Positions 40,400 to 55,531 of a DNA stretch of 64,000 bases are shown in pieces. The stretch is taken from assembly GCF_002288365.1 (NCBI RefSeq), contig NZ_CP016782.1:806001-870000 (forward strand), given 5' to 3'. The DNA is from Candidatus Planktophila limnetica (GTDB lineage Bacteria > Actinomycetota > Actinomycetes > Nanopelagicales > Nanopelagicaceae). The first letter of the stretch is position 1. Every line of letters begins with the position of its first letter. The translations under genes and the position numbers were made by a program. The notes under the pieces were generated by a model. The model was not told the DNA's origin, made no database searches, and saw only the letters and a list, made by a program, of their open reading frames with translations.

Positions 40400-43240
40400 T
40401 TATGAGCAACCGCTTGTGTTTCCACAACCTTCGCACACGAAGCAAGCACCTGACATACGCATCTTCACACCGCATGTCATGCACAGTGGCGCATCAGATT
40501 TGATACCCATTGACTCAAGAAGATCTGATGAAGAACCAATTGTCTGCGTTGGTGCTGCTGCAACCGGAGCCGCTTCGATCTTTACTTCAGTTTTTACAAC
40601 CGCAGGAGCCGCCACAGGCGCAACTGCTTTTGGGGTATCAGAGCCCGCGATTGGTGCGTACTCGCCACCATTGTCTAGTGCTGCTTGACGCTCTGCTGAT
40701 GTGTATAGACCCATCGCACTGCGTTGTTCAAATGGCATGTAATCAAGTGCTAAACGACGGAAGATGTAATCCATCATTGATTGCGCCATGCGAATGTCAG
40801 CATCATCTGTCATACCTGCTGGTTCAAATCGCAAGTTTGTGAACTTCTCAACAAATGTTTCTAGTGGAACACCGTATTGAAGACCGATTGATACTGCGAT
40901 TGAGAACGCATCCATTACACCGGCCAACGTCGATCCTTGCTTGCCGAGCTTGAGGAATACCTCACCGAGTGCACCATCTGCGTATGCACCAGCGGTCATG
41001 TAACCCTCGGCGCCACCAACAGCAAATGATGTTGTTGTTGCAGGACGTGATTTAGGAAGACGCTTGCGAACAGGGGAGGCAATTACTTGCGCATCTACTG
41101 GTGCATCTTTCTTCTTAGCCTTGCCATCAGATAATGGTTGTCCAACCTTGCAATTATCGCGATAGACAGCAAGTGCTTTCACACCCATCTTCCACGCTTC
41201 AAAGTAAACCTCTTCAACTTCTTCAACTGTGGCATCTTCTGGCAAGTTAACAGTCTTTGAAATCGCACCCGATAGGAATGGTTGGCATGCAGCCATCATT
41301 CGAACGTGGCCCATTGGAGCAATTGAACGTGCACCAAGTGCGCAGTCAAATACTTCGTAGTGCTCAGGCTTTAATCCTGGAGCATCGATCACGTGACCAT
41401 TTGCTGCAATGAATTCAACGATTGCTTCGATGGTCTCTTCTGCATAACCAAGTTTGCGAAGGGCGGCAGGTACTGTCTGGTTAACGATCTGCATAGATCC
41501 GCCACCGACTAGCTTCTTAAACTTTACAAGTGAGAAGTCAGGTTCGATACCAGTTGTATCGCAATCCATCATCAAACCAATTGTTCCAGTTGGTGCAAGA
41601 ACTGAGATCTGCGCGTTGCGCCATCCGTTCTTATCTCCTGTTGTAAGACATGCATCCCAGGCCTTATTCGCCTCTGTCCACACATCGCGATCAAGTGTTG
41701 TCTCTGTCTTTGCAGCCGATGATGCCGCAGCGTGCTTGCGCATAACGCGAGCATGCGGCTTAGCATTTTGTGCAAAGCCGGCATACGGTCCAACGATTCC
41801 TGCGAGTTCTGCAGAGCGCTTGTATGTAACACCTGTCATCAATGATGTGATGGCGCCAGCTAATGCGCGTCCACCTTCGGAGTCATAAGCAAGACCAGAT
41901 GCCATAAGGAGTGCACCTAGGTTTGCATATCCGATACCGAGTTGACGGTAAGCCTTTGTTGTTTCGCCAATTGCTTCAGTTGGGAAGTCAGCGAAGCAGA
42001 TTGAGATATCCATTGATGTGATCACAAGTTCGCATGCGCGAGCAAATGTCTTTGCATCAAATGAACCATCTTCTTTTAGGAACTTCATCAAGTTAAGGGA
42101 AGCCAAGTTACAAGATGAGTTATCTAGTGACATGTACTCAGAGCAAGGGTTTGACGCATTGATGCGACCTGTCTCTGGGTTTGTGTGCCAATCATTGATT
42201 GTGTCGTCATATTGAATTCCAGGGTCAGCACATGCCCACGCAGCTTGTGCCATCTTTGTAAACAATGTGCGAGCATCAACGCGCTCGATGACATCGCCAC
42301 TTGCGCGACCGACTAGACCGAAGTCTTCGCCCTTTTCAACTGCGCGCATGAATTCATCTGATACGCGAACTGAGTTGTTAGCGTTCTGGTACTGCACGGA
42401 AATAATGTCTTTTCCGCCAAGGTCCATATCAAAACCAGCATCGCGTAATGCGCGAATCTTGTTCTCTTCGTTGACCTTTGTCTCAATGAACTCTTCGATA
42501 TCTGGATGATCAACATCTAGAACAACCATCTTGGCTGCGCGACGTGTCGCACCACCAGATTTAATTGTTCCAGCGGATGCATCTGCGCCTCGCATGAATG
42601 AAACTGGACCGGAGGCGGTTCCACCTGATTTTAGTAACTCTTTCGCAGAGCGAATACGTGAAAGGTTTAGTCCAGCACCGGATCCGCCTTTGAAGATCAT
42701 TCCTTCTTCGCGGTACCAGTTAAGAATTGATTCCATAGTGTCATCGACTGAGAGAATGAAGCACGCACTTACTTGCTGTGGTGCATTTGTTCCCACGTTA
42801 AACCACACTGGTGAGTTGTATGCAAAGTACTGGTGCAACAACATAAATGTTAATTCGTGCTCAAAGATTTCTGCATCTTTGTCAGTGGCAAAGTATCCAT
42901 GCTCTTTACCAGCTTTTGTGTAAGTCAATACAACGCGGTCAATAACTTGCTTAAGTGACCATTCGCGATTGTCATATCCCAATGCACCGCGGAAATACTT
43001 TGTTGTCACAATCGTTGATGCGTTCACTGACCAGAAGTCAGCAAATTCCACACCACGTTGTTCAAATACGGTCTCGCCAGTCTTCCAGTTTTGCTGCACC
43101 ACATCGCGACGTTCCCATTTAACTTCATCGTATGGGTGCACGCCTTCCTTTGTGTAGATGCGTTCGATCGTTAAGCCCTTACCTTTTAAGGTGTTGTGAG
43201 CTTTGATCTTTACTGGGCGGTTGATGACCGTGTCTGACAT
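40400..43240 (-). CDS. nrdJ: Adenosylcobalamin-dependent (class II) ribonucleotide reductase
   Basis: It makes deoxyribonucleotides using vitamin B12. The 946-residue protein has the reductase barrel with NASNPCSEYMSLDNSSCNLASLNL, SVLAPTGTIGLMMDCDTTGIEP and GGSGAGLNLSRIR. The C-terminal tail has CMTCG and CEGCGNTSGCS Cys clusters for re-reduction. It follows nrdR by 19 bp and is presumably controlled by it. If no other reductase exists elsewhere, DNA synthesis in this organism requires cobalamin. Confidence 0.96.
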   Translation of the reverse strand: MSDTVINRPVKIKAHNTLKGKGLTIERIYTKEGVHPYDEVKWERRDVVQQNWKTGETVFEQRGVEFADFWSVNASTIVTTKYFRGALGYDNREWSLKQVIDRVVLTYTKAGKEHGYFATDKDAEIFEHELTFMLLHQYFAYNSPVWFNVGTNAPQQVSACFILSVDDTMESILNWYREEGMIFKGGSGAGLNLSRIRSAKELLKSGGTASGPVSFMRGADASAGTIKSGGATRRAAKMVVLDVDHPDIEEFIETKVNEENKIRALRDAGFDMDLGGKDIISVQYQNANNSVRVSDEFMRAVEKGEDFGLVGRASGDVIERVDARTLFTKMAQAAWACADPGIQYDDTINDWHTNPETGRINASNPCSEYMSLDNSSCNLASLNLMKFLKEDGSFDAKTFARACELVITSMDISICFADFPTEAIGETTKAYRQLGIGYANLGALLMASGLAYDSEGGRALAGAITSLMTGVTYKRSAELAGIVGPYAGFAQNAKPHARVMRKHAAASSAAKTETTLDRDVWTEANKAWDACLTTGDKNGWRNAQISVLAPTGTIGLMMDCDTTGIEPDFSLVKFKKLVGGGSMQIVNQTVPAALRKLGYAEETIEAIVEFIAANGHVIDAPGLKPEHYEVFDCALGARSIAPMGHVRMMAACQPFLSGAISKTVNLPEDATVEEVEEVYFEAWKMGVKALAVYRDNCKVGQPLSDGKAKKKDAPVDAQVIASPVRKRLPKSRPATTTSFAVGGAEGYMTAGAYADGALGEVFLKLGKQGSTLAGVMDAFSIAVSIGLQYGVPLETFVEKFTNLRFEPAGMTDDADIRMAQSMMDYIFRRLALDYMPFEQRSAMGLYTSAERQAALDNGGEYAPIAGSDTPKAVAPVAAPAVVKTEVKIEAAPVAAAPTQTIGSSSDLLESMGIKSDAPLCMTCGVKMRMSGACFVCEGCGNTSGCS

Positions 43241-43259
43241 TTTTTAATCCCCGTATTCG

Positions 43260-43823
43260 TTAGTTGGAACTTTTGATTTTGTGCATGGATGTATTGCTTT
43301 TTAATTCATCAGTAATTGGGGAATTACTTTGATTGCTACTGTTCTTGTTGCTTTGCGTGCTTTGGGAATTCGCACTCGAAGGTATTGCTCGCAGTAATGC
43401 GATCTCTACTTCGAAATCTTCAAGGGAGGTAAAGTTACGGTATACCGAGGCATATCGCAGGTAGGCGACCTCATCTAGTTCTCGGAGTGGCGCAAGAATT
43501 GCTAGGCCAACCTCCTGTGCTTCGATATCTGCTTGACCTGTTGCGCGAAGTGCTTCTTCAACACGCTGTGCCAAAAGAACTAGATCATCTTCATTAACCG
43601 GACGTCCCTGGCACGCTTTGCGCACGCCAACTAGGACCTTTTCACGGCTAAATGGTTCTGTGGCGCCGCTTCGCTTGATGATGTTAAGCAGTGCTACTTC
43701 TTGAGTTGAAAATCTCTGTCCGCACTCTGGGCATTCGCGGCGACGGCGAATCTGTGTGCCTTCTTCTACTGGGCGAGAGTCCACGACTCTGGAGTCATCG
43801 TGTCTGCAAAACGGGCAAATCAT
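43260..43823 (-). CDS. nrdR: Transcriptional repressor NrdR
   Basis: A zinc-ribbon/ATP-cone repressor of ribonucleotide reductase genes, sensing dATP/ATP. The ribbon is CPFC...CPEC at 3-6 and 31-34, with [12 protein letters not shown] and IRRRREC. The ATP-cone follows (about 46-136) with [12 protein letters not shown]. After YRNF and the usual end near residue 150 there is an extra tail of about 35 residues rich in Ser, Asn and Lys, which is unusual. Two NrdR-box-like sites lie upstream. Confidence 0.96.
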
Positions 43824-43902
43824 CTCGGCGTGTCCTCTCTCTTAAATCCCACTATTTTGAAAAATCCGATGTATTGAGCGGAGTGAGAACTTTACCGTAA
43901 AA

Positions 43903-43918
43903 ACACTACTTATGGAAA
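43903..43918. promoter_or_regulatory. NrdR box, proximal (weaker)
   Basis: ACACTACTTATGGAAA matches the NrdR consensus ACACTATATATAGTGT mainly in its left half. It lies 80 bp upstream of nrdR, and its centre is 31 bp from the stronger distal box, as expected for paired NrdR sites. Confidence 0.5.
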
Positions 43919-43933
43919 GTTTTCTCGTTTCAA

Positions 43934-43949
43934 CCCCTACATATAGTGG
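43934..43949. promoter_or_regulatory. NrdR box, distal
   Basis: CCCCTACATATAGTGG matches the NrdR consensus at about 12 of 16 positions, including CTA-ATATAGTG. With the site at 43903-43918 it forms a tandem pair three helical turns apart. A TTGAAA, possible -35 element of the nrdR-nrdJ promoter, lies between the two boxes on the minus strand. Confidence 0.65.
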
Positions 43950-43993
43950 AAACCATAAAGGATTGCCTGAGAGTTTGCCTGTATTGATGGCAC

Positions 43994-44025
43994 ATTGCGC
44001 TCACCCCCGCGTGTCGCAGGGTGCA
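43994..44025 (-). ncRNA. Structured leader element upstream of nrdR
   Basis: Between the amidohydrolase stop and nrdR the minus strand holds a GC-rich compound hairpin: TTGC-ACCC pairs with GGGT-(GAGC)-GCAA, with an inner GCG/CGC. It is followed by AACTCTCAGGCA near 43965-43976. No T-run follows, so a simple terminator is unlikely. It may be part of a regulatory RNA, or just the end of the upstream operon's transcript. Confidence 0.35.
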
Positions 44026-44031
44026 AGCCGA

Positions 44032-45651
44032 CTAGAAGGAGCGCTGCCCGCCTAGGTAGGTCGCTAGAACCGTGATTGCGCGCATGGCCGCAGGCCCTGC
44101 CGCAAGCGGGTTGGCATCGACAACAGCAAAGTCTGCGTACTTACCCACTTCGATGCTGCCGATCAGATCGGCCTTACCCAGGGCCTTGGCCCCACCCATT
44201 GTGTGGGCAATCAGAGCGGTTCTGGCATCGATTTTTAAATCATTGGCGCCAAGTTCTGTTCCGTGAACAGTTAAGCGATCCATAGCAGCTGCCATCGCTT
44301 CAAATGGATTTGGTTTACCCACTGGAGCATCGGAAGAAAGAGCAAAGCTGACACCATTTTTTACGAATTCACCAAGTGGATTAAAGCGCTCGCCAATTTC
44401 ATTGCCAACAGCTGTGACAACACCATCGCCCCAGTTGTGATGATGGATAGGTTGATTCACCGCAATGATTTCTAAATCATGTAACTCATGTGATTGCTTC
44501 TCTTGTGGCAAACCACAGTGCTCGATTCGCACAATTGGAAAAGCACCGTTAACACTTTTAATCTCTTTGTTGCGCATTGCACGAGCAGATGAAATAACCA
44601 TTCCGATTGCAGTCGGTGATTGGGCATGTGTGGCAATGTGATAGCCCTGTGTCGCACAATCGAGAAATATTGATTCAAACTCTTGCGCATCGTGATAGAG
44701 CTGACCAGTTCTATTCTTATCTGCTTTATATCCTTCTGGAAAGTATGCAGTCCAGCCGCCTAAGGTGCCATCGGCATACATCTTGATTCCATTTGCTGTC
44801 AGCATTGTGTTATCAATTGCGGCATCTTGACTAAGTTTTTTAGCGTGTCCAACTTGGGATGAAATCAAATACATTGAATAGCGCACCTTGAGCGCACCAT
44901 TTTTCTTTGCATCCTTATATGTATCAAATTCTCGTTGGCTGACTTGGGCATCGCCCACTGATGTCACGCCATGGCGAATGAATTCGTGTTGTGCCTGCAA
45001 GAATTGTTTTGTAAGAACACTTTGGGTATCAGGTAAGTGAAAGTTAGGTCCATGATTTGTGACCTTCACGCCGGCATCTCCAGTTAAAATGTCACACGCC
45101 GCATCCCAGATAACACCTGTGGGATTTCCGCTTGCATCACGCTCAAAAGCGCCGCCTTTAGGATCTGGTGTCTTTGCTGTAATCGCACTTTTTTCAAGGA
45201 CTAATGTGTTTACTGCCCCGCCGTGACCACTTGCATTCATGACATAAATTTCGCGAGTAGTACTGATTTGATCAATATCTTCTTTCGTGGGGTGTCGACC
45301 TTCTTCTAAATTGCGGTGTTCATACCCAAAGGCTCGAAGTGGAACTCCTGCTGGCAGTGCTGCTTCTTCCCTTTTTAATATCTCAATAATCTGGGTGATG
45401 TTCTTAGCTTTACTAGGTCCAACATCGACCCAATCCATCATCTGTCCATACATCAATGGGTGTGCATGGGGATCGACGAATCCTGGCAAGAGCACTGCGC
45501 CTTTAAGATCGATGATTTCTGTTGCACCAGCAGATAACTCAGCACTTTTTCCAATCGCACTGATGATGCCATCTTTGACTGCAATGGCATCGGCACCTAC
45601 TGGTAGTTCTACGGTTGGAGAAATAATCTGCGCGTTAATGAAAACTTTCAT
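44032..45651 (-). CDS. YtcJ-like metal-dependent amidohydrolase
   Basis: A 539-residue member of the amidohydrolase_3 group. The metal-binding VDPHAHPL lies near residue 60, a second His-rich region is in GYHIATHAQSP, another His in RIEHCGLP, and the conserved Asp is in ALSSDAPVG. Families of this type remove acyl or amide groups, but the substrate is not predictable. It is the last gene of the operon running from 50602; the start overlaps the ThDP enzyme stop by 4 bp, so it probably processes a product of the same pathway. Confidence 0.88.
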   Translation of the reverse strand: MKVFINAQIISPTVELPVGADAIAVKDGIISAIGKSAELSAGATEIIDLKGAVLLPGFVDPHAHPLMYGQMMDWVDVGPSKAKNITQIIEILKREEAALPAGVPLRAFGYEHRNLEEGRHPTKEDIDQISTTREIYVMNASGHGGAVNTLVLEKSAITAKTPDPKGGAFERDASGNPTGVIWDAACDILTGDAGVKVTNHGPNFHLPDTQSVLTKQFLQAQHEFIRHGVTSVGDAQVSQREFDTYKDAKKNGALKVRYSMYLISSQVGHAKKLSQDAAIDNTMLTANGIKMYADGTLGGWTAYFPEGYKADKNRTGQLYHDAQEFESIFLDCATQGYHIATHAQSPTAIGMVISSARAMRNKEIKSVNGAFPIVRIEHCGLPQEKQSHELHDLEIIAVNQPIHHHNWGDGVVTAVGNEIGERFNPLGEFVKNGVSFALSSDAPVGKPNPFEAMAAAMDRLTVHGTELGANDLKIDARTALIAHTMGGAKALGKADLIGSIEVGKYADFAVVDANPLAAGPAAMRAITVLATYLGGQRSF

Positions 45652-47249
45652 TTTTTATCCGCCGGAGATCCTGGTTCAGTAACAATAATGACACTCGGTG
45701 TGTTCATTGATAACGCTTTCTTAAATTGTGTGCGCAGTTCATCCGGAGTGCGCACGCGAGATGCATTCATACCAAAACCTTTAGCAACATCTGTTAGATC
45801 AAAGGATGAAATATCCACGCCATTTCGATCAGCCTTGGCGCGATCAAATGAATCACGGATTTCGCCATAGCCTGCGTTATCCCAAATGATGGTGACAATT
45901 GTTCCGCTGACATCTCGAGCCGTTGCTAACTCTGAAATAGTAAAGAGAACTCCACCATCTCCAGCAATGATGACAACAGGATCTTTTGGCGCTGCCACTT
46001 TCGCACCAATTCCCATAGGAAGTGCGGGGCCTAGCGTTCCAAGTCCATATGGTGCAAGCCAACGAGATGGAGTTGACCATGGTGTGTAGTGATGGGCGGT
46101 GTATGCCAACTGCGTTGAATCCAGGGAAACAATTGCATTTGCCGGCATCTGCTCATTGATGACATCTAGCCAAGCAAAGTGCGAGCGAGATTGATTCGTC
46201 CAACCAATATCTGCGCGCGCTTGTGCAGCTGCAGCCGGTGCTCCTTGATTGCTACTCACAAAACCACTATCGGTGAGCGCTTGTGTAAGAGCTGATGCAA
46301 AGAGCGCGGCATCTGAAACAACACCGATCTCAGCTGTGAGCCCAGATTGCAATTGCGTTGTATCTAGATCTACTCGAATCATTAAACGAGGCTGGCCCAC
46401 TCGCTTGCCCGTATAAATAATGTCCACATCACTAAATTCTGTAGCGATTGCGATCACCACATCAGCCGATGCAATCAGTGCCTGTCCCCCAGTAAATGGC
46501 AGAGTTGTTCCGGCATTGAGTGGGTGCTTATCTGGCAGCAAACCACGAGCGTTGCCCGTTGTAATAACTGGTGCTTGTAGTTTTTCTGCTAACTCTTGAA
46601 TCTGGCGATGCGCACGATTTGCACCACCACCGCAAATAATGACAACAGAGGCTGCTGACTTAACTGCATCCGCTACTTTTTTAATATCAGAATCTGTTGG
46701 TGTGCGCACCGCAGCTGCAACGCTTAACTTTTTCATTGGCGCAATGTCGCGACTTAAGACATCAAATGGCACAGATATGTGCACAGGTCGTGCTCGATTA
46801 ACAGACCAACTGGCAAAGGCTGTGGCAACAACTTCTGAGAATTGATCAGGATCAGTAACAGTCACACTGGCATCGGTCAGCTGAGTGAAAAACCCTGCTT
46901 GATCTGGAACATCATGTAATGGTCCGCGATTTTTTCCACTGAGCTCTGATTCTGTACTTGCTGCAAGAACCAACATCGGAATCGAGTCATGCCAGGCTTG
47001 TGCAATAGGTGTTGCAGCATTTAAAACACCGGGGCCGGAAACTAATACGCAGACCCCTGGTTTGCCTGAAATACGCGCATATCCATCTGCCATAAATCCT
47101 GCGCCTTGTTCGTGGCGAGGAACTACTCCTTTGATGCCGCTTTCTGTAATACCGCGGTAATACTCGATGGTGTGCACACCTGGAATACCAAAAATTGTGT
47201 CCACGTCATATTGCTTTAGCAACTTCATTGCTTCGCTACCGAAACTCAT
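45648..47249 (-). CDS. ThDP-dependent decarboxylase, AruI-like
   Basis: A 533-residue thiamine diphosphate enzyme with three domains. FGIPGVHTIEYYRG at the N-terminus and PRHEQGAGFMADGYAR with the cofactor-activating Glu closely resemble AruI, which decarboxylates 5-guanidino-2-oxopentanoate in arginine breakdown. The C-terminal ThDP motif is GDGGVLFTISELATA through NAGYGEI. Acetolactate synthase is a more distant alternative and no small subunit gene is near. Context with an amino-acid importer supports action on a 2-oxo acid. It starts 4 bp after the dehydrogenase stop. Confidence 0.82.
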   Translation of the reverse strand: MSFGSEAMKLLKQYDVDTIFGIPGVHTIEYYRGITESGIKGVVPRHEQGAGFMADGYARISGKPGVCVLVSGPGVLNAATPIAQAWHDSIPMLVLAASTESELSGKNRGPLHDVPDQAGFFTQLTDASVTVTDPDQFSEVVATAFASWSVNRARPVHISVPFDVLSRDIAPMKKLSVAAAVRTPTDSDIKKVADAVKSAASVVIICGGGANRAHRQIQELAEKLQAPVITTGNARGLLPDKHPLNAGTTLPFTGGQALIASADVVIAIATEFSDVDIIYTGKRVGQPRLMIRVDLDTTQLQSGLTAEIGVVSDAALFASALTQALTDSGFVSSNQGAPAAAAQARADIGWTNQSRSHFAWLDVINEQMPANAIVSLDSTQLAYTAHHYTPWSTPSRWLAPYGLGTLGPALPMGIGAKVAAPKDPVVIIAGDGGVLFTISELATARDVSGTIVTIIWDNAGYGEIRDSFDRAKADRNGVDISSFDLTDVAKGFGMNASRVRTPDELRTQFKKALSMNTPSVIIVTEPGSPADKK

Positions 47250-47253
47250 CTAT

Positions 47254-48189
47254 CTATCCTGCCTTTTCGTTAAAGAAGTCAATGACGTTTTGTGCCTGAA
47301 CCGTAATGTAAGCCTTTTGTGTAAATTGTGAAAGATAGGCAACGTGAGGCGTTAATAACACCTTTGGATTATTTAGTAATGGATTATCAGCCTTTGCTGG
47401 TTCGCCATCAATCACATCTAGCGCCGCGCCTGCTAAGTGCCCAGACTTAAGTGCTGCTGCGAGTGCACTTGAATCAACAATTGAACCACGAGATGCATTT
47501 ACTAGGTATGAACCTGGTTTCATCGCTGCAAATAAATCCTTATTAAATAAGTACTTGTTCTCAGCTGTTGCAGGTGCATTAATTGAGAGCACATCAGATT
47601 CTTTAACTAACTCATCAAAGCTGACGGATTTAAATTGTGGATCTAGTGATTGGCTGACAAATGGATCGTGAAAGATCACGGAGCCAAACATCGGTGCGCC
47701 ATAGCGAGCTATTAATTGGCCGATGCGACCAAAACCTAGAACACCTAATTTCAATGTAGAAATGCGCGGTGGTACAACTGGATACGGAGTCTTAAACCAT
47801 TCAAGTCTTTGCGCAGCGGCTGCAAATTTATCTACGCCACGAAGCATCGATAAAGTGATTGCGATGCTGTGCGAAGCAACCTCTTCTGAAGCGACTCCAC
47901 CGAGTGCGAATAATGAAATATTGCGATCTGCCAACACCTTCGTATCGACATTATCTGTACCGGTGCTCAGCAGCGAAACGACTTCAAGACTTTCTAGTTC
48001 ATCGATTAACTCTTTTGAAATAGTGGCATAGCCAACTAAGAGCGCTTCTGCGTGTTTTGCAACTTCTGCTATCTCTTTTTGATCATGCGTTTCAAGCTTA
48101 ATCACCTCAAAGCCTGCAGCTTTGAGGAGCTTTATGCCCTCAGTTGGATCTAGATCATCAGTGTCTGTATAAACCGCTAAGCGGTTCAT
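47254..48189 (-). CDS. D-2-hydroxyacid dehydrogenase
   Basis: A 311-residue NAD(P)-linked dehydrogenase. LGVLGFGRIGQLIARYG binds the nucleotide, and the catalytic set is Arg in LVNASRGSIVD, Glu in DGEPAKADNP and His in LTPHVAYLS. It would interconvert a 2-hydroxy acid and the 2-oxo acid that the next enzyme could decarboxylate. It overlaps the ABC ATPase by 4 bp. It is shorter than 3-phosphoglycerate dehydrogenase and lacks an ACT domain. Confidence 0.9.
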   Translation of the reverse strand: MNRLAVYTDTDDLDPTEGIKLLKAAGFEVIKLETHDQKEIAEVAKHAEALLVGYATISKELIDELESLEVVSLLSTGTDNVDTKVLADRNISLFALGGVASEEVASHSIAITLSMLRGVDKFAAAAQRLEWFKTPYPVVPPRISTLKLGVLGFGRIGQLIARYGAPMFGSVIFHDPFVSQSLDPQFKSVSFDELVKESDVLSINAPATAENKYLFNKDLFAAMKPGSYLVNASRGSIVDSSALAAALKSGHLAGAALDVIDGEPAKADNPLLNNPKVLLTPHVAYLSQFTQKAYITVQAQNVIDFFNEKAG

Positions 48190-48944
48190 TGAACGTGTTC
48201 CAAAAACTTCTTCGTGCGCTCGTGAGATGGATTAGTAAAGAATTGATCCGGTGGCAACGCTTCAACAATCTCGCCCTCATCAAACATCAATACTTCATTA
48301 GCCACACGGCGGGCAAAGCCAACTTCGTGAGTGACAACAAGCATTGTCATGCCATCTTCGGCAAGCTTCTCCATCACCTTGAGCACTTCGCGCACAAGCT
48401 CTGGATCAAGAGCACTCGTTGGCTCATCAAAGAGCATCAACTGCGGTGCTAAAACAAGGGCTCGAGCAATTGCGACACGCTGTTGTTGACCACCTGATAA
48501 TTCCGAAGGGAAAAATGTTATGCGATCGCCCAATCCCACTCGTTCGAGCATATGAATTGATTGATTACGTGCATCTTTCTTATCAAGACCCTGCACTGTG
48601 GTCAGCGCGCACATCACATTTTCAACAGCGCTTAAGTGTGGAAATAAATTAAACTTTTGAAAAACCATTCCGATTCCGCGGCGGCGAAGAGCCAAGACTT
48701 TTTCACTCTCTGGTTTTGCACGGGAACCATCAGAATTTCCCGCAATTAAATCACCATTAAACAAAATCTTTCCAGAGTGCACTGGCTCTAAAAGCGCAAT
48801 CAGACGCAAAAGTGTCGATTTACCTGATCCCGAAGGACCCATAATCGCCTTTACTTGGCCTGCGTTAATTTTAAAATCAACACCTTTAAGAATGTGATTG
48901 TCGCCGTAATACTTCTCGACTTTTTGAACATCAATCAGGCTCAC
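48186..48944 (-). CDS. Amino-acid ABC transporter ATP-binding protein
   Basis: A GlnQ/HisP-type ATPase, 252 residues from GTG 48944, which has GGGAAGG just before it and overlaps the permease stop as GTGA. The frame further upstream lies in the permease gene. Motifs are GPSGSGKST, LSGGQQQRVAIARAL, LMLFDEPTSALD and VVTHE, all intact. Together with the permease and binding protein it should form a polar amino-acid importer. Confidence 0.94.
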   Translation of the reverse strand: MSLIDVQKVEKYYGDNHILKGVDFKINAGQVKAIMGPSGSGKSTLLRLIALLEPVHSGKILFNGDLIAGNSDGSRAKPESEKVLALRRRGIGMVFQKFNLFPHLSAVENVMCALTTVQGLDKKDARNQSIHMLERVGLGDRITFFPSELSGGQQQRVAIARALVLAPQLMLFDEPTSALDPELVREVLKVMEKLAEDGMTMLVVTHEVGFARRVANEVLMFDEGEIVEALPPDQFFTNPSHERTKKFLEHVQ

Positions 48945-49648
48945 TTGGAAACCTTCCCGCTCTTTTTGGTTGTAGAAATCCATGCATATCGCTTTTCAAG
49001 ACGCGATTGCAATATCATCAAGATAGAGACAATAACTAAGTAATAAATAAGTGCCGCTGCGTAATACTCAACGTATCTAAAGGTTGCAGAAACACCATTG
49101 CCCGCACGCGTCAGCAGCTCTTGAAGTGAAATCACAGATGCTAACGATGTGTACTTAATCATTCCGATGTATTCATTGGCAGTCGGTGGTATGGCAATAC
49201 GAGTAAGTTGTGGAATAACAACTTTGCGCATTACCTGCGTTGGTGTCATTCCGAGTGCACGTGCAGCAAGTGCTTGTCCTTCATCAACGCTCATGATTGA
49301 TGAGCGCAAAATCTCGGCCATATAAGCACCTTCAAGCAACGACAATGCAAGTAGGGCTGCTAAGAATGGGCTGTACCACTCTTGGCGCAAGGCGGGAATT
49401 AATTGTGGAAGCGCATTCCACACAATAAGTAGTAATAAAAGCGCTGGGATCGCGCGGAATAGCCAGATATAAACCCCAGCAAATGATTTAAGCACTGGGT
49501 TCTTGCCTAGTCGGAAAATGGCTAAAAAGAAACCAAAGAGAATTGCAAAGAACTGCGAAAGCGTTGCCAGGGATAATGAAATAGCGGCACCTTTTAAAAA
49601 GGCTCCGGAGAATAGAACTTCAAAAAATAACTTGCTCTCGAAATCCAT
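48941..49648 (-). CDS. Amino-acid ABC transporter permease
   Basis: A 235-residue HisM/GlnP-type membrane subunit with about five membrane segments. The EAA-like loop that contacts the ATPase is EGAYMAEILRSSIMSVDEGQALAARALGM. It is the only permease in the cluster, so the importer would use a homodimer. A strong hairpin at 49684-49728 separates it from the binding-protein gene. Confidence 0.93.
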   Translation of the reverse strand: MDFESKLFFEVLFSGAFLKGAAISLSLATLSQFFAILFGFFLAIFRLGKNPVLKSFAGVYIWLFRAIPALLLLLIVWNALPQLIPALRQEWYSPFLAALLALSLLEGAYMAEILRSSIMSVDEGQALAARALGMTPTQVMRKVVIPQLTRIAIPPTANEYIGMIKYTSLASVISLQELLTRAGNGVSATFRYVEYYAAALIYYLVIVSILMILQSRLEKRYAWISTTKKSGKVSK

Positions 49649-49683
49649 CTTCTCCCTTTCTGTTAAAAACTACTTTAGATGAT

Positions 49684-49728
49684 AAATAAAGTGATGCTGG
49701 CGGTTTGCCCACCAGCATCACTTTATTT
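49684..49728. terminator. Strong hairpin between binding-protein and permease genes
   Basis: A 17-bp near-perfect stem (AAATAAAGTGATGCTGG and its complement) with an 11-nt loop, with T-rich flanks in both directions. It lies 35 bp after the binding-protein stop and 36 bp before the permease start. Partial termination here would give more binding protein than membrane complex. Confidence 0.9.
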
Positions 49729-49762
49729 TTAACTACCCCTAGTCCCGAGGATAACTCGAGAT

Positions 49763-50602
49763 TTAGATTGGCGCACCAACAGAGGTGAGCTTCTCTGGAT
49801 CCAAGTTATACCTTTTAGCAATCTTGGCAAGAGTTCCGTTGCTGATTAACTTCTCAACGGCCTTTTGAACTACAGGAGTAAGAGCTGCGCCCTTATTCAT
49901 GTAAGCAGCGAACTGAACATCACCAAGGAAGTATCCCTTAGCAACTTCTAGACGCTTTGAATTCTTGCTCACGATGTCACCGCATCCGACGTCAGTTTCG
50001 ATGAGTCCATCGACCTTACCGTTTAGAAGTGCACCAACTGTCTCTGAAACCTTTGGATAAGAAGAAATTGCAATTCCTTTCTTACCTGTGTCTAAACAGA
50101 CCTTGTTCTGAGCAATCAAAATACCTTCATTACTTGATGCACCTTGTGCAGCCATGCGCTTTCCGCAGAGAGAGAATGACAAGTCAGTAATCTTCTTTGG
50201 ATTTCCCTTTGCAACAACAACGCCCGCACCTGTTTCTAGGTAAGGAACACCATCTGCAACAGCTAAACGCTTATTGCTGAGATAAAGCGCAGTCCAGACG
50301 ATGTCGCATCGACCTGCGTTAAGTGCAGGAATAAGTCCATCGAATGATGTTGCAAGTTGCTTAATCTTTAACTTAAGTTCTTTTGCAAGTGCTGCTGATG
50401 AATCAGCATCAAATCCAATGATCTTTCCTGAAGTTCCATTTGAGTAGTACTCCATTGGTGGGTACTCAGGATCGATACAGTTGGTAAGAGTTCCACTTGT
50501 TACAAGATCTGCTTTCCAATCTGCATTAGCTGGCGATACTGACCCCAGCACAAGCGCCAAGGTTGCGACCGAAACCGCAATGATTGATTTCTTAGATTTC
50601 AC
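49763..50602 (-). CDS. Amino-acid ABC transporter substrate-binding protein
   Basis: A 279-residue type II binding protein with a signal peptide of about 27 residues (cleavage after ANA) and no lipobox Cys at that point. CIDPEYPPMEYY, GFDADSSAALAKEL and LYLSNKRLAVADGVPYL place it in the polar amino-acid group; the Arg in NKR is where ligand carboxylate usually binds. GTG start with a GGGGGG site 7 nt before it. First gene of the operon to 44032. Confidence 0.92.
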   Translation of the reverse strand: MKSKKSIIAVSVATLALVLGSVSPANADWKADLVTSGTLTNCIDPEYPPMEYYSNGTSGKIIGFDADSSAALAKELKLKIKQLATSFDGLIPALNAGRCDIVWTALYLSNKRLAVADGVPYLETGAGVVVAKGNPKKITDLSFSLCGKRMAAQGASSNEGILIAQNKVCLDTGKKGIAISSYPKVSETVGALLNGKVDGLIETDVGCGDIVSKNSKRLEVAKGYFLGDVQFAAYMNKGAALTPVVQKAVEKLISNGTLAKIAKRYNLDPEKLTSVGAPI

Positions 50603-50635
50603 TTACATTCCCCCCGTACCTAATTGGTTTCGGCG

Positions 50636-50664
50636 AGTTTATGTCGCTATTGCACCTTTAACAA
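50636..50664 (-). promoter_or_regulatory. Putative promoter of the amino-acid importer operon
   Basis: On the minus strand TTGTTA, 17 bases, then TAAACT lies 34 bp upstream of the binding-protein GTG. Both hexamers deviate from consensus, so this is a plausible but unproven sigma-A promoter. Confidence 0.4.
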
Positions 50665-50693
50665 TGCTTTTTGGGGTGAAAAACTCTGTGAAT

Positions 50694-51047
50694 CTATGCC
50701 AGCGGAACGCGGATCTTCTGTCCGGGCGATACTGCGCCATCAGATAAGGAATTAGCTGAAACGATGGCATCGACAACTTCGCGGACATCTCGACCATCGG
50801 CCACAGAGTGTGCGATTGACCAAATTGAATCCCCACTGCCCACAGTCAAGACAACATAATTAGAACTGCCCGAAACCACACCAGCTGTTGCAACATCGCC
50901 AGCCCCTGCCTTATAGGCAAGTGCGGCTAGCAAAACCACAGCCAGAGAAAGCACCACGAGAAAACGAGCAAGACGACCTCGGCGATTTAGGCCGGACGGA
51001 ATGGTCGGTGCAGTAATTGAATTAAAGCTAGCTGCGTATGTACTCAT
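50694..51047 (-). CDS. Membrane-anchored LysM protein
   Basis: ATG 51047 gives 117 residues and has a GGAG site 9-12 nt before it. A short N-terminus is followed by one membrane helix (about 28-48) and a C-terminal LysM domain (about 65-116) with VGSGDSIWSIAHSVADG and VSPGQKIRVP, for peptidoglycan binding. In mycobacteria a LysM gene beside lexA (Rv2719c/ChiZ) is an SOS-induced division inhibitor. Two LexA boxes in the upstream region suggest the same role here, which is inferred. Confidence 0.88.
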   Translation of the reverse strand: MSTYAASFNSITAPTIPSGLNRRGRLARFLVVLSLAVVLLAALAYKAGAGDVATAGVVSGSSNYVVLTVGSGDSIWSIAHSVADGRDVREVVDAIVSANSLSDGAVSPGQKIRVPLA

Positions 51048-51089
51048 GGTCTTTACTCCTGCTGCGGGTAAAACCTTGGGGAAGGTTTT

Positions 51090-51105
51090 TCGAACACTTG
51101 TTCGA
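51090..51105. promoter_or_regulatory. LexA (SOS) box of the LysM gene
   Basis: TCGAACACTTGTTCGA is a perfect match to the actinobacterial SOS box, TCGAAC-N4-GTTCGA. It lies 43 bp upstream of the LysM start. Confidence 0.9.
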
Positions 51106-51148
51106 TAGGAAAACCATACCCCCACCCACTGACAAATTCAACTTATTT

Positions 51149-51164
51149 TCGAACATTTGTTTGA
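51149..51164. promoter_or_regulatory. Second LexA-like box
   Basis: TCGAACATTTGTTTGA differs from the SOS consensus by one base and lies 59 bp from the perfect box. It is upstream of the LysM gene in the minus direction and of the glycerol importer in the plus direction, so it could affect either. Confidence 0.75.
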
Positions 51165-51176
51165 ATATTTTCCACG

Positions 51177-51204
51177 CTCACGCTCAGCGTGAGGGCTATC
51201 CCTC
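51177..51204. promoter_or_regulatory. Two overlapping hairpins before the glycerol importer
   Basis: CTCACGC-TCA-GCGTGAG (51177-51193) and GAGGG-CTAT-CCCTC (51191-51204) share the bases 51191-51193 and cannot both form. They lie between the LexA box and the glpS start, about 115 bp upstream. Alternative pairing suggests possible regulation but no ligand is known. Confidence 0.35.
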
Positions 51205-51316
51205 GTGACCTAAACGTTACCTTCTGGGCGAAAATAACCCTTTCCAAGGGCTGGGTAACACGCCTAGATTGCCCCTACAAGATCCTGCCAAATCCCTGTG
51301 AGAGGAGATCGGCCCT

Positions 51317-52387
51317 GTGTCATTAGTTGCCAAGAACTTAACGCTGCTACATAACGGCGAAGTTTTTCTAGATGACATCTCTTTCACTGCGAGCCCTGGC
51401 ATCACAGTTTTAGTGGGTCCAACTCTTAGCGGCAAGACAACTCTTATGCGCGCATTGGCAGGTTTGATCAAAACTGATTCCGGAAGCGTCAGCGTCAATG
51501 GTGTCGATGTCGGTCTGACATCGGTAAAAGATCGCTCTGTTTCTTTTGTGTATCAACAATTTATTAACTATCCGTCCTTAAGTGTCTTTGACAATATTGC
51601 ATCGCCTCTTCGAGTATTAAAGCCAAAGATTTCAAAAGAAGAGATAGAAAGCCGCGTGCACGAAGTTGCAGCGATGCTTCGTATTACCGAGTTACTAGAT
51701 CGCAAGCCATCTGCTCTTTCAGGTGGACAACAACAGCGCGTAGCCATTGCACGCTCTCTTGCACGCAAGAGTGATGTAGTTCTTTTGGATGAGCCACTTG
51801 CAAACCTTGACTTTAAATTACGCGAGCAATTACGAGATGAACTACAGCGCATCTTTGCAGATGCGGACATGATGGTTATTTACTCAACTGCTGAACCACT
51901 AGAAGCACTTGATATGGCAGCTCACACAATCGTGATGAATGAAGGTCGCGTCGAACAAGATGGCAACGCGTTAGATTTGTATGCACGTCCAAAGAATCTA
52001 CCTGTGGCACTTGCAATGAGTGATCCACCGCTTAATCTGATTGCATCCAGCGTTGCAACCTCTAATTCTGAATCCCTCGGTCGAGTCTTATCCGATAAGT
52101 TCGGCGGCACTTTCACACTCGGTATTCGCCCTCATAACATCGCTTTGCAATCAGCTGGCGCCAACGATATTGGCATCAGCGGCAAGGTGCGCATCTCTGA
52201 GATCACAGGTAGTTCCACATACCTTCACTTAGATCTAGAAAATGCGCAGAAGATTGTTCTTGAATTAGATGGGGCGCAAAACTTCACATCTGGTTCAACA
52301 ATGACTGTCTTTCTTGATCGAAGCGCCGTCTATGGCTTTGATCCAAAGACTGGCACCACACTCTTTGCTCCAGCGGCGGTGCGCTAA
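51317..52387 (+). CDS. glpS: Glycerol-type ABC importer ATPase 1
   Basis: A 356-residue MalK-like ATPase, first gene of a cluster whose order (two ATPases, two permeases, DUF2160 protein, binding protein) matches the rhizobial glycerol transporter GlpSTPQUV. The Walker A is GPTLSGKTT, the signature LSGGQQQRVAIARSL and Walker B VVLLDEPLANLD. The H-loop, normally THD, reads YSTAEP and has no His. The C-terminal OB-like regulatory part is present. GTG start with AGAGGAG before it. Confidence 0.85.
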   Translation: MSLVAKNLTLLHNGEVFLDDISFTASPGITVLVGPTLSGKTTLMRALAGLIKTDSGSVSVNGVDVGLTSVKDRSVSFVYQQFINYPSLSVFDNIASPLRVLKPKISKEEIESRVHEVAAMLRITELLDRKPSALSGGQQQRVAIARSLARKSDVVLLDEPLANLDFKLREQLRDELQRIFADADMMVIYSTAEPLEALDMAAHTIVMNEGRVEQDGNALDLYARPKNLPVALAMSDPPLNLIASSVATSNSESLGRVLSDKFGGTFTLGIRPHNIALQSAGANDIGISGKVRISEITGSSTYLHLDLENAQKIVLELDGAQNFTSGSTMTVFLDRSAVYGFDPKTGTTLFAPAAVR

Positions 52388-53460
52388 TGGCTGAGATCCG
52401 CTTAGAAAATGTTGGCCATTCATATGATGATGGCGCAACATTTGCACTGAACCCAATTTCACTGACATGGAAAGATGGCAACGCTGTTGCCCTGCTTGGT
52501 CCATCTGGATGCGGTAAGACAACTCTTCTAAATATTATTTCTGGTCTTCTCACACCATCTGTTGGCCGTGTTTACTTTGATGGCGTAGATGTCACAGATT
52601 TAGATACTGCAAAGCGCAACGTTGCTCAGGTTTTCCAATTCCCTGTTCTATACGACACGATGACTGTGCGCCAAAATCTTGCCTTCCCACTTAAAAACCG
52701 CAACGTTGCCAAAGATGTTATTGCCGCTCGTGTGGAAGAAATCGCAGAGCTCCTGGGCATATCTAAATACCTAGATATTCGCCCATTAAAGCTGCGTTCA
52801 GATCTGCAGCAGCTAGTTAGCCTTGGCCGCGGCCTTGTGCGCAAAGATGTGCCGGCTATTTTATTCGATGAGCCTTTAACTGTCATTGATCAGAACTTTA
52901 AGTGGACTCTTCGCGGTCGCCTGAAAGAAATGCATAACAACACCCGTCACACACTTGTCTATGTCACACACGATCAGACAGAAGCGCTGACATTTGCCGA
53001 TGAAGTCGTTGTTTTGAACAAGGGCGATATCGTGCAGACCGGAACCGCTTCAGATTTGTTCTTGACTCCACAAGATGAGTTCGTAGGATTTTTTATTGGT
53101 TCTCCTGGAATGAACTTTTTAGATGGCAAAGTCAACGATGGCGCAGTCATTGTGGGTTCTACTCAGATTGGCTCCTCTGCCATTGCTAATGGCAATGTGA
53201 GAATTGGTATTCGCCCAGAGTTCTTATCACTTACTTCATCTGGCGCCGGTGTGGCTGTAAAAATTAATCGCGTGGAACACCGCGGTGGTTACAAACTTGT
53301 TCACGCAGACGCCGCCCAAGGAAAATTTGTTGCAAAGCTTGCAAATGATTCAGCGCTTACCGCGGGCCAGAGTGCGCACTTAGCCTTTGACCCACAACGC
53401 ACATATCTATTCCGCGATTCAAAGCTCTGCGGCACCGTTGACACAAAGGGGGCGAACTGA
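52387..53460 (+). CDS. glpT: Glycerol-type ABC importer ATPase 2
   Basis: A 357-residue partner of the preceding ATPase, overlapping it by one base. The Walker A GPSGCGKTT, Walker B AILFDEPLTVID and H-loop YVTHDQTEAL are intact. The signature motif is degenerate: LRSDLQQLVSLGRGL stands where LSGGQQQRVAIARAL would be. This is the mirror image of the GlpS defect, so the two together should form an asymmetric dimer. The C-terminal half has the MalK-type regulatory fold (IGIRPEFLSL). Confidence 0.85.
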   Translation: MAEIRLENVGHSYDDGATFALNPISLTWKDGNAVALLGPSGCGKTTLLNIISGLLTPSVGRVYFDGVDVTDLDTAKRNVAQVFQFPVLYDTMTVRQNLAFPLKNRNVAKDVIAARVEEIAELLGISKYLDIRPLKLRSDLQQLVSLGRGLVRKDVPAILFDEPLTVIDQNFKWTLRGRLKEMHNNTRHTLVYVTHDQTEALTFADEVVVLNKGDIVQTGTASDLFLTPQDEFVGFFIGSPGMNFLDGKVNDGAVIVGSTQIGSSAIANGNVRIGIRPEFLSLTSSGAGVAVKINRVEHRGGYKLVHADAAQGKFVAKLANDSALTAGQSAHLAFDPQRTYLFRDSKLCGTVDTKGAN

Positions 53461-54335
53461 TGAAAACGCGTAATAACAAAGCCTGGTTCTTAGTTCTGCC
53501 CGTTATTTTGGTTGTCTCTTTCACAGCACTGATTCCATTGATGACAGTTGCTAACTATGCAATCCAAGATATTTTCAGCCCAGATAATCGTTTGTTCGTG
53601 GGTATGAAGTGGTTCTATGACATCACAAATGACACATTAATCATTGATGCTTTCAAGCGCAGCTTCCAATTTTCTATTCAAGCGCTTTTGATTCAAATCC
53701 CACTAGGTATTGCCATTGCGCGCATCATGCCTAAATCAGGGTGGAAGGCATCGGCTGCTTTGGTCGCAGTTTCAATTCCTTTAATTATTCCTTTTAACGT
53801 TATCGGTTCAACATGGCTGATCTTCTCTCGCAAAGATATTGGCCTTGGTGGATTCTTGCTCAATAAGTTATTTGACTTTGACTTTACCTCTGATCCAAAA
53901 GATGGCTGGGGACTAATTCTGGCCGTTGACGTCTGGCACTGGACTCCACTTGTGGCCCTGCTTGTCTATGCAGGTCTTCGTTCAATTCCCGAGGCGTATT
54001 ACCAAGCAGCGGCAATTGATGGTGCATCAACTTTTGCAATATTTAGATATGTAGAGCTTCCAAAGCTTCGTCGCGTTTTACTTATCGCACTGCTTCTTCG
54101 TTTCATGGATAGCTTCATGATTTACACCGAACCATTTGTTATTACAGGCGGTGGTCCAGGAGATGCGACAACCTTTGCAAGTATTTTGCTTACCAACATC
54201 GCAGTTGGCCAATTCGACGTCGGTCGAGCCGGTGCCTACTCATTGATCTTCTTCTTACTCATTCAGATCATGTCCTTTATCTTCTATACCGTTTTGACGC
54301 TGCAAGATCGAGAAGAGGAGACGAAAACTAAATGA
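53460..54335 (+). CDS. glpP: Glycerol-type ABC importer permease 1
   Basis: A 291-residue permease of the MalF type with about six membrane segments. The EAA loop is EAYYQAAAIDGASTFAIFRYVELPKL. A TEPFVITGGGPGDAT run follows, typical of the sugar/glycerol group. It overlaps glpT by one base and glpQ by four, indicating tight translational coupling. Confidence 0.9.
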   Translation: MKTRNNKAWFLVLPVILVVSFTALIPLMTVANYAIQDIFSPDNRLFVGMKWFYDITNDTLIIDAFKRSFQFSIQALLIQIPLGIAIARIMPKSGWKASAALVAVSIPLIIPFNVIGSTWLIFSRKDIGLGGFLLNKLFDFDFTSDPKDGWGLILAVDVWHWTPLVALLVYAGLRSIPEAYYQAAAIDGASTFAIFRYVELPKLRRVLLIALLLRFMDSFMIYTEPFVITGGGPGDATTFASILLTNIAVGQFDVGRAGAYSLIFFLLIQIMSFIFYTVLTLQDREEETKTK

Positions 54336-55189
54336 GTAAGTCACAGACACTTGTTAAGGGCGCCTTCTCTCCACAGAAGAAGAAGCAATCTTTGCCATGG
54401 TCAGGTTTTATTTTCTGGCTTGTCATGGCAATCTGGATGGTTCCGGTCGCATGGCTCATTCTGATGTCGGTGCGACCATCTGCAGATATTTTAGGAAACT
54501 TTGAAATCATTCCATCTAGATTTACATTCGATGGATATCGCGACTTCATCTTAAAAGACATGTGGTACAAGGCTTATTTGAACTCTTTGACCTATTCCAC
54601 ACTCAACACAATCTTCTCAGTAACGCTGGCACTACCTGCGGCCTATGCCTTCTCTCGCTTTAGCTTTACTGGAGATAAGCACTTGTTCTTCTGGTTGCTG
54701 ACAAATCGCATGGCACCGGCTGCTGTGTTCTTGCTTCCTTTCTATAACATGTATAACGCTGTTGGATTATTTGATAAGACTCTCGGTGTTGCCATCGCAC
54801 ACATGCTCTTTAACGTGCCTCTGGCTGTCTGGATTCTAGAAGGCTTTATCTCCGGCATCCCGCGACAAGTCGATGAGACCGCAGCCATTGATGGCTATTC
54901 ACTTCCTAAGTTTTTCATCAAGATCTTCTTGCCAATGATTCGCTCCGGTATCGGTGTCACAGCCTTTTTCTGCTTCATGTTTAGCTGGGTTGAATTACTT
55001 ATTGCCAGAACCATTACAAGTACTGATGCCAAACCAATTAGCGCTGCGATGACAAGAACAGTTTCATCATCTGGCACAGACTGGACACTTCTTTCAACCG
55101 CTGGTGTTATGACGATCATCCCTGGTGTTCTAGCTATTTGGTTCGTGCGCAAATACATCGCTAAGGGCTTTGCGTTAGGTCGTGTATAA
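54332..55189 (+). CDS. glpQ: Glycerol-type ABC importer permease 2
   Basis: A 285-residue MalG-type permease with six hydrophobic segments and the EAA loop DETAAIDGYSLPKFFIKIFLPM. The LTNRMAPAAVFLLPFYNMY segment is characteristic of the glycerol branch. It overlaps glpP by 4 bp, and the DUF2160 gene starts 2 bp after its stop. Confidence 0.9.
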   Translation: MSKSQTLVKGAFSPQKKKQSLPWSGFIFWLVMAIWMVPVAWLILMSVRPSADILGNFEIIPSRFTFDGYRDFILKDMWYKAYLNSLTYSTLNTIFSVTLALPAAYAFSRFSFTGDKHLFFWLLTNRMAPAAVFLLPFYNMYNAVGLFDKTLGVAIAHMLFNVPLAVWILEGFISGIPRQVDETAAIDGYSLPKFFIKIFLPMIRSGIGVTAFFCFMFSWVELLIARTITSTDAKPISAAMTRTVSSSGTDWTLLSTAGVMTIIPGVLAIWFVRKYIAKGFALGRV

Positions 55190-55191
55190 AA

Positions 55192-55467: not shown

Positions 55468-55515
55468 AGAGAAAAAATAGAATTGTTACAGGGCAACTTG
55501 TGGCGATAGTTAGAA

Positions 55516-55531
55516 CCACTCACCTGAGTGG
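55516..55531 (+). promoter_or_regulatory. Intercistronic hairpin before the binding-protein gene
   Basis: CCACTC-ACCT-GAGTGG is a perfect 6-bp stem with a tetraloop in the 86-bp gap between glpU and the lipoprotein gene. It may block 3' exonucleases or act as an mRNA processing site, raising binding-protein expression. Confidence 0.5.

What the first reader, a model, noticed from the sequence alone, without database searches (positions are those of the whole stretch)
44032..50602. Six-gene uptake-and-catabolism operon: amino-acid importer, D-2-hydroxyacid dehydrogenase, AruI-like decarboxylase, YtcJ-like amidohydrolase
All six genes run the same way. Apart from the hairpin after the first gene, every junction is a 4-bp overlap or a 4-bp gap. 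The enzymes make chemical sense in sequence: dehydrogenase to or from a 2-oxo acid, ThDP decarboxylation of the 2-oxo acid, then hydrolysis of an amide or acyl group. The ThDP enzyme resembles AruI (5-guanidino-2-oxopentanoate decarboxylase), but no AruH transaminase or aldehyde dehydrogenase is nearby. That suggests a variant pathway starting from a guanidino or amino 2-hydroxy acid, or from arginine-like substrates. I know of no described pathway with this gene set.
Basis: partly seen in the sequence, partly recalled or inferred. Interest (0 to 1): 0.65.

Follow-up and report, generated by a model that had tools for sequence, protein, structure and literature searches.

The report
Arginine-like hydroxy-acid uptake and breakdown operon
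A six-gene operon in a small-genome actinobacterium probably imports an arginine-like acid that has lost its amino group and breaks it down by a variant of a known arginine-degradation route, which would add a new entry point to that route.

Summary
In detail: six co-directional genes (binding protein, permease, ATPase, D-2-hydroxyacid dehydrogenase, ThDP decarboxylase, YtcJ-type amidohydrolase), with junctions of 114 (hairpin), -4, -4, +4 and -4 bp. The order is kept in three congeneric loci. Importer, decarboxylase and dehydrogenase stay together in Actinoplanes and Kineosporia. The decarboxylase passes the cut-off of the 5-guanidino-2-oxopentanoate decarboxylase (AruI) model and fails every listed acetolactate-synthase cut-off. 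Guanidine chemistry recurs around it: an agmatinase-family ureohydrolase beside the operon in two congeners, and a deiminase-like plus a carbamoyl-hydrolase-like gene inside the Kineosporia version. Most of the sister clade of decarboxylases (5 of 6) sits beside an AruH-like aminotransferase; this clade carries the dehydrogenase instead. Other families of 2-hydroxyacid-oxidising enzymes lie near AruI relatives in Psychrobacter and Pararhizobium. In five full-length operon-type binding proteins (and a partial sixth), the aspartate expected to hold an alpha-ammonium is threonine. Best reading: uptake and catabolism of a guanidino (or amino) 2-hydroxy or 2-oxo acid such as argininic acid, by a transaminase-free variant of the arginine transaminase pathway. 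Substrate and amidohydrolase step are inferred. In the genus it is rare (amidohydrolase in 5 of 131 genomes).

The parts
49763..50602 (-). Solute-binding protein, SBP_bac_3 family; carboxylate-binding Arg kept, position of the alpha-ammonium-binding Asp is Thr (roles recalled)
   Evidence: model pLDDT 84.8, best Foldseek match an arginine-bound ancestral binding protein
49649..49762 (-). Intergenic hairpin, 20-bp perfect stem, between SBP and permease
   Evidence: z -7.43; hairpins at the same place in three congeneric loci
48941..49648 (-). Single permease of a polar-amino-acid-type importer
48186..48944 (-). Importer ATPase, nearest model GlnQ (below its cut-off); GTG start with 4-bp overlap
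47254..48189 (-). D-2-hydroxyacid dehydrogenase; Arg/Glu/His triad visible in the alignment; NAD use inferred from an Asp after the Rossmann motif
45648..47249 (-). ThDP-dependent decarboxylase, AruI (PRK07524) family
44032..45651 (-). YtcJ-type amidohydrolase (Amidohydro_3), HxH metal motif kept

Best explanation
The operon imports and degrades a guanidino (possibly amino) 2-hydroxy or 2-oxo acid, most likely 2-hydroxy-5-guanidinopentanoate (argininic acid) and/or 2-ketoarginine. Proposed order: the ABC importer takes up the acid; the D-2-hydroxyacid dehydrogenase oxidises it with NAD+ to 2-ketoarginine; the AruI-type enzyme decarboxylates that to 4-guanidinobutanal. An aldehyde dehydrogenase and a ureohydrolase encoded elsewhere in the genome (the ureohydrolase beside the operon in two congeners) give 4-guanidinobutyrate, then GABA plus urea, and GABA transaminase carries it on. 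The dehydrogenase thus replaces the AruH transaminase. Shown here: gene content, linkage, families, phylogeny and the binding-site substitution. Inferred: substrate, direction, every catalytic step. The amidohydrolase is the weakest point; I guess it hydrolyses an acylated or cyclic form of the substrate or product.
For: AruI-family model passed. Decarboxylases of the six operon loci form one clade (SH-aLRT 98), sister (99) to six relatives, 5 of which have an AruH-like aminotransferase directly upstream. Guanidine enzymes by linkage: ureohydrolase beside the operon in G247 and G183 (G247 copy: agmatinase model 329 bits, cut-off 302); deiminase-like and allantoate-amidohydrolase-type genes between ThDP and DHD in Kineosporia. 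Among 80 named ThDP loci, 18 hold a ureohydrolase match and 5 a DDAH-like one (Kineosporia, a query, counted). In the genus, the ureohydrolase type occurs in 12 of 131 genomes, including 4 of the 5 with the amidohydrolase (hypergeometric 2e-4, not corrected for relatedness). A DHD-first search found a DHD-AruI pair next to another importer in G516 (ThDP 500.5 bits, cut-off 500). Other families that include 2-hydroxyacid oxidisers lie by AruI relatives: PF09330 in Psychrobacter, PF01565/PF02913 in Pararhizobium p4, an annotated alpha-hydroxy acid oxidase about 8 kb away on p3. Binding protein lacks the alpha-ammonium Asp.
Against: No biochemistry. In the window genome the ureohydrolase is unlinked, in a cluster with another amidohydrolase, and that ureohydrolase type also occurs in 8 genomes where the operon's amidohydrolase was not found. 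G192 has the amidohydrolase but no ureohydrolase of this type was found (76% complete). The Actinoplanes locus shows no match to the guanidine enzymes searched. The ThDP enzyme of G553 beside a DHD fails the AruI cut-off (316.8, cut-off 500), and two of the four non-operon genomes with the best DHD matches have no ThDP neighbour. G839, the next branch out in the ThDP tree, has neither aminotransferase nor dehydrogenase match in the stretch held. A characterised AruI relative, S. meliloti IlvB1, has sevenfold higher activity on 5-amino-2-oxopentanoate (PMC7268258, passages). The Asp-to-Thr pattern is imperfect: one aminotransferase-linked locus (L053) lacks the Asp, and L044 and L113, without an AruH-like match, keep it.
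Confidence: 0.5

Rival explanations
1. The operon handles ornithine- or lysine-like 2-hydroxy/2-oxo acids (no guanidine), with the YtcJ-type enzyme as an omega-N-acyl hydrolase freeing the side-chain amine.
For: S. meliloti IlvB1, an AruI relative, is sevenfold more active on 5-amino-2-oxopentanoate (PMC7268258, passages seen). An epsilon-lysine acylase, SmELA, is classed as YtcJ-like (PMC10699109, passages seen). Structural matches of the binding protein include ornithine and lysine binders.
Against: Ureohydrolase and deiminase-like genes beside the operon or within it in relatives point to a guanidino group.
Confidence: 0.2
2. Ordinary arginine uptake and transaminase pathway with an unlinked transaminase; the dehydrogenase only reduces spare 2-ketoarginine to the hydroxy acid as a redox valve.
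For: Many of the best fold matches are arginine and glutamine binders; the genome has distant aminotransferase matches; dehydrogenases of this family are reversible (recalled).
Against: Best AruH-like match in the genome is 29% identical; the binding protein lacks the alpha-ammonium Asp; FAD and FMN enzyme families that normally work oxidatively (recalled) also sit near AruI relatives.
Confidence: 0.2
3. The ThDP enzyme is a carboligase or acetolactate-type synthase, not a decarboxylase of guanidino acids.
For: Same superfamily; the nearest solved structures by sequence are BbmA, acetolactate synthases, CsmA and a 2-hydroxyacyl-CoA lyase.
Against: The listed acetolactate-synthase models are all below cut-off (best 25 of 54 families shown) while the AruI model is passed; no small subunit beside it.
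Confidence: 0.05

Closest known systems
Arginine transaminase pathway (AruH, AruI, aldehyde dehydrogenase, GbuA; P. aeruginosa names recalled; S. meliloti network in PMC7268258, passages seen)
   Same: AruI-family decarboxylase above model cut-off; ureohydrolase linked in two congeners; aldehyde dehydrogenases and a GabT-like gene (by eye) in the genome
   Different: No linked AruH; a D-2-hydroxyacid dehydrogenase in its place; own importer and a YtcJ-type amidohydrolase; ureohydrolase not linked in the window genome
Arginine oxidase/dehydrogenase pathway of cyanobacteria (PMC2242806, passages seen)
   Same: Reaches 2-ketoarginine and 4-guanidinobutyrate without a transaminase
   Different: Starts with an L-amino-acid oxidase; for AoxA the paper describes non-enzymatic, peroxide-driven conversion to 4-guanidinobutyrate; here a 2-hydroxyacid dehydrogenase plus a ThDP enzyme
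Ureohydrolase-AruI clusters of Pseudomonas and Stutzerimonas (L016, L035)
   Same: Same importer type with a related SBP, an AruI relative and a ureohydrolase
   Different: No D-2-hydroxyacid dehydrogenase match in those loci; extra NCS1/SSS-like permeases (assigned by eye) in L016

Membership tests
AruI / 5-guanidino-2-oxopentanoate decarboxylase (NF005712) | Score above the curated model cut-off | tested here: met
   547.9 bits, cut-off 500
AruI / 5-guanidino-2-oxopentanoate decarboxylase (NF005712) | Decarboxylates 2-ketoarginine | not testable with these tools
   No assay; a relative with another preference is known (PMC7268258, passages)
Arginine transaminase pathway | AruH-type aminotransferase linked to AruI | tested here: not met
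   None adjacent; best genome match 29% identical
Arginine transaminase pathway | Ureohydrolase (guanidinobutyrase) present | tested here: inconclusive
   Two arginase-family genes in the genome, neither linked, substrates unknown; one linked to the operon in G247 and G183
Acetolactate synthase | Score above a curated acetolactate-synthase cut-off, with a small subunit nearby | tested here: not met
   Best 282.5 bits against 538.35 among the 25 families shown; no small subunit among neighbours
Polar-amino-acid ABC importer | SBP_bac_3 binding protein, BPD_transp_1 permease, ABC ATPase in one operon | tested here: met
Alpha-amino-acid-specific binding proteins | Asp for the alpha-ammonium group (role recalled from LAO/GlnH structures) | tested here: not met
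   Thr in 5 of 5 full-length operon-type rows; the partial G247 sequence agrees. By sequence alignment only
D-2-hydroxyacid dehydrogenase | Both Pfam domains and Arg/Glu/His triad | tested here: met
   triad recalled, read from the alignment
YtcJ-like amidohydrolase (Amidohydro_3) | Pfam domain above cut-off and HxH metal site | tested here: met
   270.2 bits, cut-off 29.7; HxH conserved with a 25% identical relative

The most novel reading that the evidence does not exclude
Bacteria share an undescribed pathway for imported 2-hydroxy (deaminated) guanidino acids, in which at least three unrelated 2-hydroxyacid-oxidising enzyme families (NAD-dependent D-isomer type, FAD type, FMN type) have independently been paired with AruI-type decarboxylases, and in streamlined actinobacteria it travels as a small accessory cassette that exploits deaminated arginine from other plankton.
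Probability: 0.35. Interest if true: 0.7.

Novelty: new variant of a known kind. Interest (0 to 1): 0.5.

Why it matters
If true, it gives the AruI decarboxylase family an entry point that needs no transaminase, explains a recurring but unnamed gene pair (D-2-hydroxyacid dehydrogenase plus AruI), and predicts that deaminated arginine (argininate, 2-ketoarginine) is a real nutrient. It is directly testable with purified enzymes and one binding assay.

Tried and rejected
Structure of the amidohydrolase: two-row alignment, pLDDT 38.7, not used. The pocket of the binding protein could not be inspected because no coordinates are returned; the fold search only shows that arginine, lysine, ornithine, glutamine and opine binders are all about equally close (Foldseek and VIA-align put different entries first, within Z 1). 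No Rfam family reached its threshold in 43000-51400. Promoter and terminator scans gave no more than shuffles. GC content of the operon is ordinary (z -0.72), so it gives no sign of recent transfer.

Literature: searches for argininic acid with bacteria and catabolism, 2-hydroxy-5-guanidino with dehydrogenase, guanidinobutyraldehyde with hydroxyacid dehydrogenase, the decarboxylase name, AruI with ketoarginine, guanidinobutyrase with ketoarginine, YtcJ with amidohydrolase, and Planktophila / acI Actinobacteria / Nanopelagic with arginine (open-licence PMC only). No listed title or abstract start describes this gene set; I saw listings only, plus passages of PMC2242806, PMC7268258, PMC10699109, PMC13081902 and PMC8766522. 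I considered sulpholactate-type and glyoxylate-carboligase chemistry and dropped it: those models lie far below cut-off (214.4 against 620; 190.7 against 791).

The DHD tree (10 rows) does not separate operon from non-operon DHDs: G494, without a ThDP neighbour, falls among the others. In the ThDP tree, G516 and G553 sit on long branches outside the operon clade, so the DHD-ThDP pairing may have arisen more than once. In that tree I labelled G839 with the aminotransferase group, although its stretch shows no such match. Four loci (L035, L048, L054, L067) gave no ThDP ORF by my filter and were left out of the tree. The second DHD locus of G516 (L145) has no ThDP neighbour. Plasmid records were searched too (35 records at E <= 1e-80); I opened 4, chosen by eye, and H1 (L112) and H30 (L114) showed nothing I use as support.
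Full report
WHAT IS THERE. Six genes lie head to tail on the minus strand at 50602-44032: solute-binding protein, permease, ATPase, D-2-hydroxyacid dehydrogenase (DHD), ThDP enzyme and YtcJ-type amidohydrolase (AH). Spacings are 114, -4, -4, +4 and -4 bp. The 114-bp gap holds a perfect 20-bp hairpin (z -7.43), and hairpins sit there in the three congeneric loci, two of them with quite different sequence, which fits uneven expression of binding protein and permease (inference). The genome is one contig of 1.33 Mb, 99.8% complete.

LINKAGE. A search of 296 genomes of the order with the ThDP protein found it in 4 at E <= 1e-100 (the window's own included), all of one genus. Evenly drawn samples gave 2 of 394 in the class at E <= 1e-120, again that genus, and, with the Kineosporia protein, 4 of 396 in the phylum at E <= 1e-110. 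The three other loci of the genus, once extended, carry the same order SBP-permease-ATPase-DHD-ThDP-AH (in G247 the SBP is cut by the contig end). The AH was found in 5 of 131 genomes of the genus. The fifth, G192, has a ThDP fragment at its contig edge. Kineosporia rhizophila has SBP-permease-ATPase-ThDP, then a deiminase-like and an M20 carbamoyl-hydrolase-like gene, then DHD.

ACCESSORY CASSETTE. In the window the operon lies between a LysM gene and nrdR (names by eye). In 13 of 13 congeneric genomes looked at, LysM and nrdR are neighbours without the operon between them (gap about 200 bp in 10, about 900 bp in L156, L157 and L159). Twelve of these had no ThDP match at the thresholds used; the thirteenth, G183, has the operon on another contig.

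THE DECARBOXYLASE. It passes the NCBIfam model for 5-guanidino-2-oxopentanoate decarboxylase (547.9 bits, cut-off 500) and fails all acetolactate-synthase models listed. In a tree of 87 sequences the six operon enzymes form one clade (SH-aLRT 98), sister (99) to six relatives, most of them actinobacterial. Of those six, five (L007-L010 and G782) have an AruH-like aminotransferase directly upstream; L011 does not, and G839, the next branch out, shows none either. So one branch goes with a transaminase and its sister with a dehydrogenase. The tree is a quick one without bootstraps. The ThDP enzymes of G516 and G553, also beside a DHD, fall outside on long branches.

GUANIDINE CHEMISTRY. In G247 and G183 a ureohydrolase (G247 copy: agmatinase model, 329 bits, cut-off 302; G183 copy 94% identical) lies next to the AH on the other strand. 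In Kineosporia the deiminase-like gene matches dimethylargininase models below cut-off (77 bits, cut-off 340) and ADI in Pfam (73.9, cut-off 22.8). The M20 gene passes an allantoate-amidohydrolase model (465 bits, cut-off 424). Of the 80 named ThDP loci, 18 hold a ureohydrolase match, 5 a DDAH-like one, 26 an AruH-like match (the one in L011 weak) and 42 an aldehyde dehydrogenase; 13 hold none of these four, Actinoplanes among them (tblastn E <= 1e-12, loci of 18 kb on average; reversed queries gave no hit; two query proteins come from these loci). In the genus the same ureohydrolase type occurs in 12 of 131 genomes, including 4 of the 5 with the AH (hypergeometric 2e-4). These five fall into only two groups by similarity, so the value overstates the evidence. 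In the window genome and in G177 that ureohydrolase lies in another cluster. The genome also has 10 Aldedh matches. One passes an aminobutyraldehyde-dehydrogenase model (701.4 bits, cut-off 615) and lies near a second ureohydrolase and a gene I read by eye as GABA transaminase.

TWO-HYDROXYACID OXIDATION. Starting from the DHD alone, a search of 296 genomes of the class found 4 genomes besides the window's with a match at E <= 1e-50. Two of the 4 have a ThDP gene directly next to the DHD (G516 and G553); G494 and G380 do not. The G516 enzyme just passes the AruI cut-off (500.5 against 500) and follows a different importer (by eye); the G553 enzyme fails it (316.8). Other families that include 2-hydroxyacid oxidisers occur by AruI relatives: a membrane-type FAD D-lactate dehydrogenase (PF09330) directly downstream in Psychrobacter (L077), a GlcD-type FAD oxidase (PF01565, PF02913) overlapping the decarboxylase gene on Pararhizobium plasmid p4 (L113) (these two share the FAD domain), and an annotated alpha-hydroxy acid oxidase with a DDAH-like gene in the p3 neighbourhood, about 8 kb away (L115). 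Homologues of these three were otherwise rare in the loci held at that point: two further hits to the L113 protein, neither adjacent (the alpha-hydroxy acid oxidase query was a 333-aa fragment).

THE BINDING PROTEIN. The best match by sequence and by Foldseek is an ancestral arginine/glutamine binder, tied with others in VIA-align. The Arg that holds the carboxylate is kept, but the position of the Asp that holds the alpha-ammonium group (roles recalled) is Thr in all five full-length operon-type proteins and in the partial G247 one. Among 13 other SBPs found in loci with AruI relatives (not always in the same operon), Asp is kept in 5 of 6 loci with an AruH-like match (exception L053) and in 2 of 7 without one (L044, L113; L113 has an annotated aminotransferase of another kind). 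This is suggestive only.

MECHANISM. Import; oxidation of the 2-hydroxy acid to the 2-oxo acid; ThDP decarboxylation to the aldehyde; oxidation and removal of the guanidine group by enzymes mostly encoded elsewhere. 2-Ketoarginine is formed from arginine by cyanobacterial amino-acid oxidase, and Synechococcus AoxA prefers arginine (PMC2242806, passages), so deaminated arginine is a plausible substrate in water; that link is inference. The AH stays unexplained: it is present in all five loci of the genus that I saw, and an Amidohydro_3 enzyme also follows an AruI relative in Pseudomonas sp. PB101 (L065; 25% identical), so its presence is probably not accidental.

VERDICT. A real, conserved variant of a known kind of pathway, not described in any listing or passage I saw in the searches named. 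Confidence 0.5 in the guanidino 2-hydroxy/2-oxo acid reading; lower for argininic acid itself.

Noticed in passing
window 51317-58153: A second cargo, about 7 kb with two ABC ATPase genes, lies between LysM and the lexA-like match at 58154; in 11 of 13 relatives lexA is next to LysM (in the other two loci no lexA is in view), so the lexA-LysM-nrdR region looks like an insertion hotspot.
   Followed up: partly
G000:C1 906-912 kb (L103, L104): Second YtcJ-type amidohydrolase (25% identical) with two nitrilase-like genes, an NCS1-like permease (both assigned by eye) and a ureohydrolase 58-59% identical to the one linked to the operon in G247.
   Followed up: partly
G000:C1 434-443 kb (L102): Cluster with an aminobutyraldehyde dehydrogenase, a putrescine-type importer, FAD oxidases, a ureohydrolase and a GabT-like gene (dehydrogenase and ureohydrolase, the other labels by eye).
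   Followed up: no
window 50520-50602: The binding protein here shows no lipobox-like cysteine after its signal sequence, while the Actinoplanes and Kineosporia versions do (read by eye from the alignment).
   Followed up: no
L115:1-10611 (Pararhizobium qamdonense plasmid p3): Alpha-hydroxy acid oxidase, DDAH-like, amidohydrolase, importer and AruI relative in one neighbourhood, as annotated.
   Followed up: partly
L077:5812-16684 (Psychrobacter sp. NG25): Ureohydrolase, permease, nitrilase-like, AruI relative, FAD D-lactate-dehydrogenase-type gene and aldehyde dehydrogenase in one run (permease and nitrilase by eye).
   Followed up: partly
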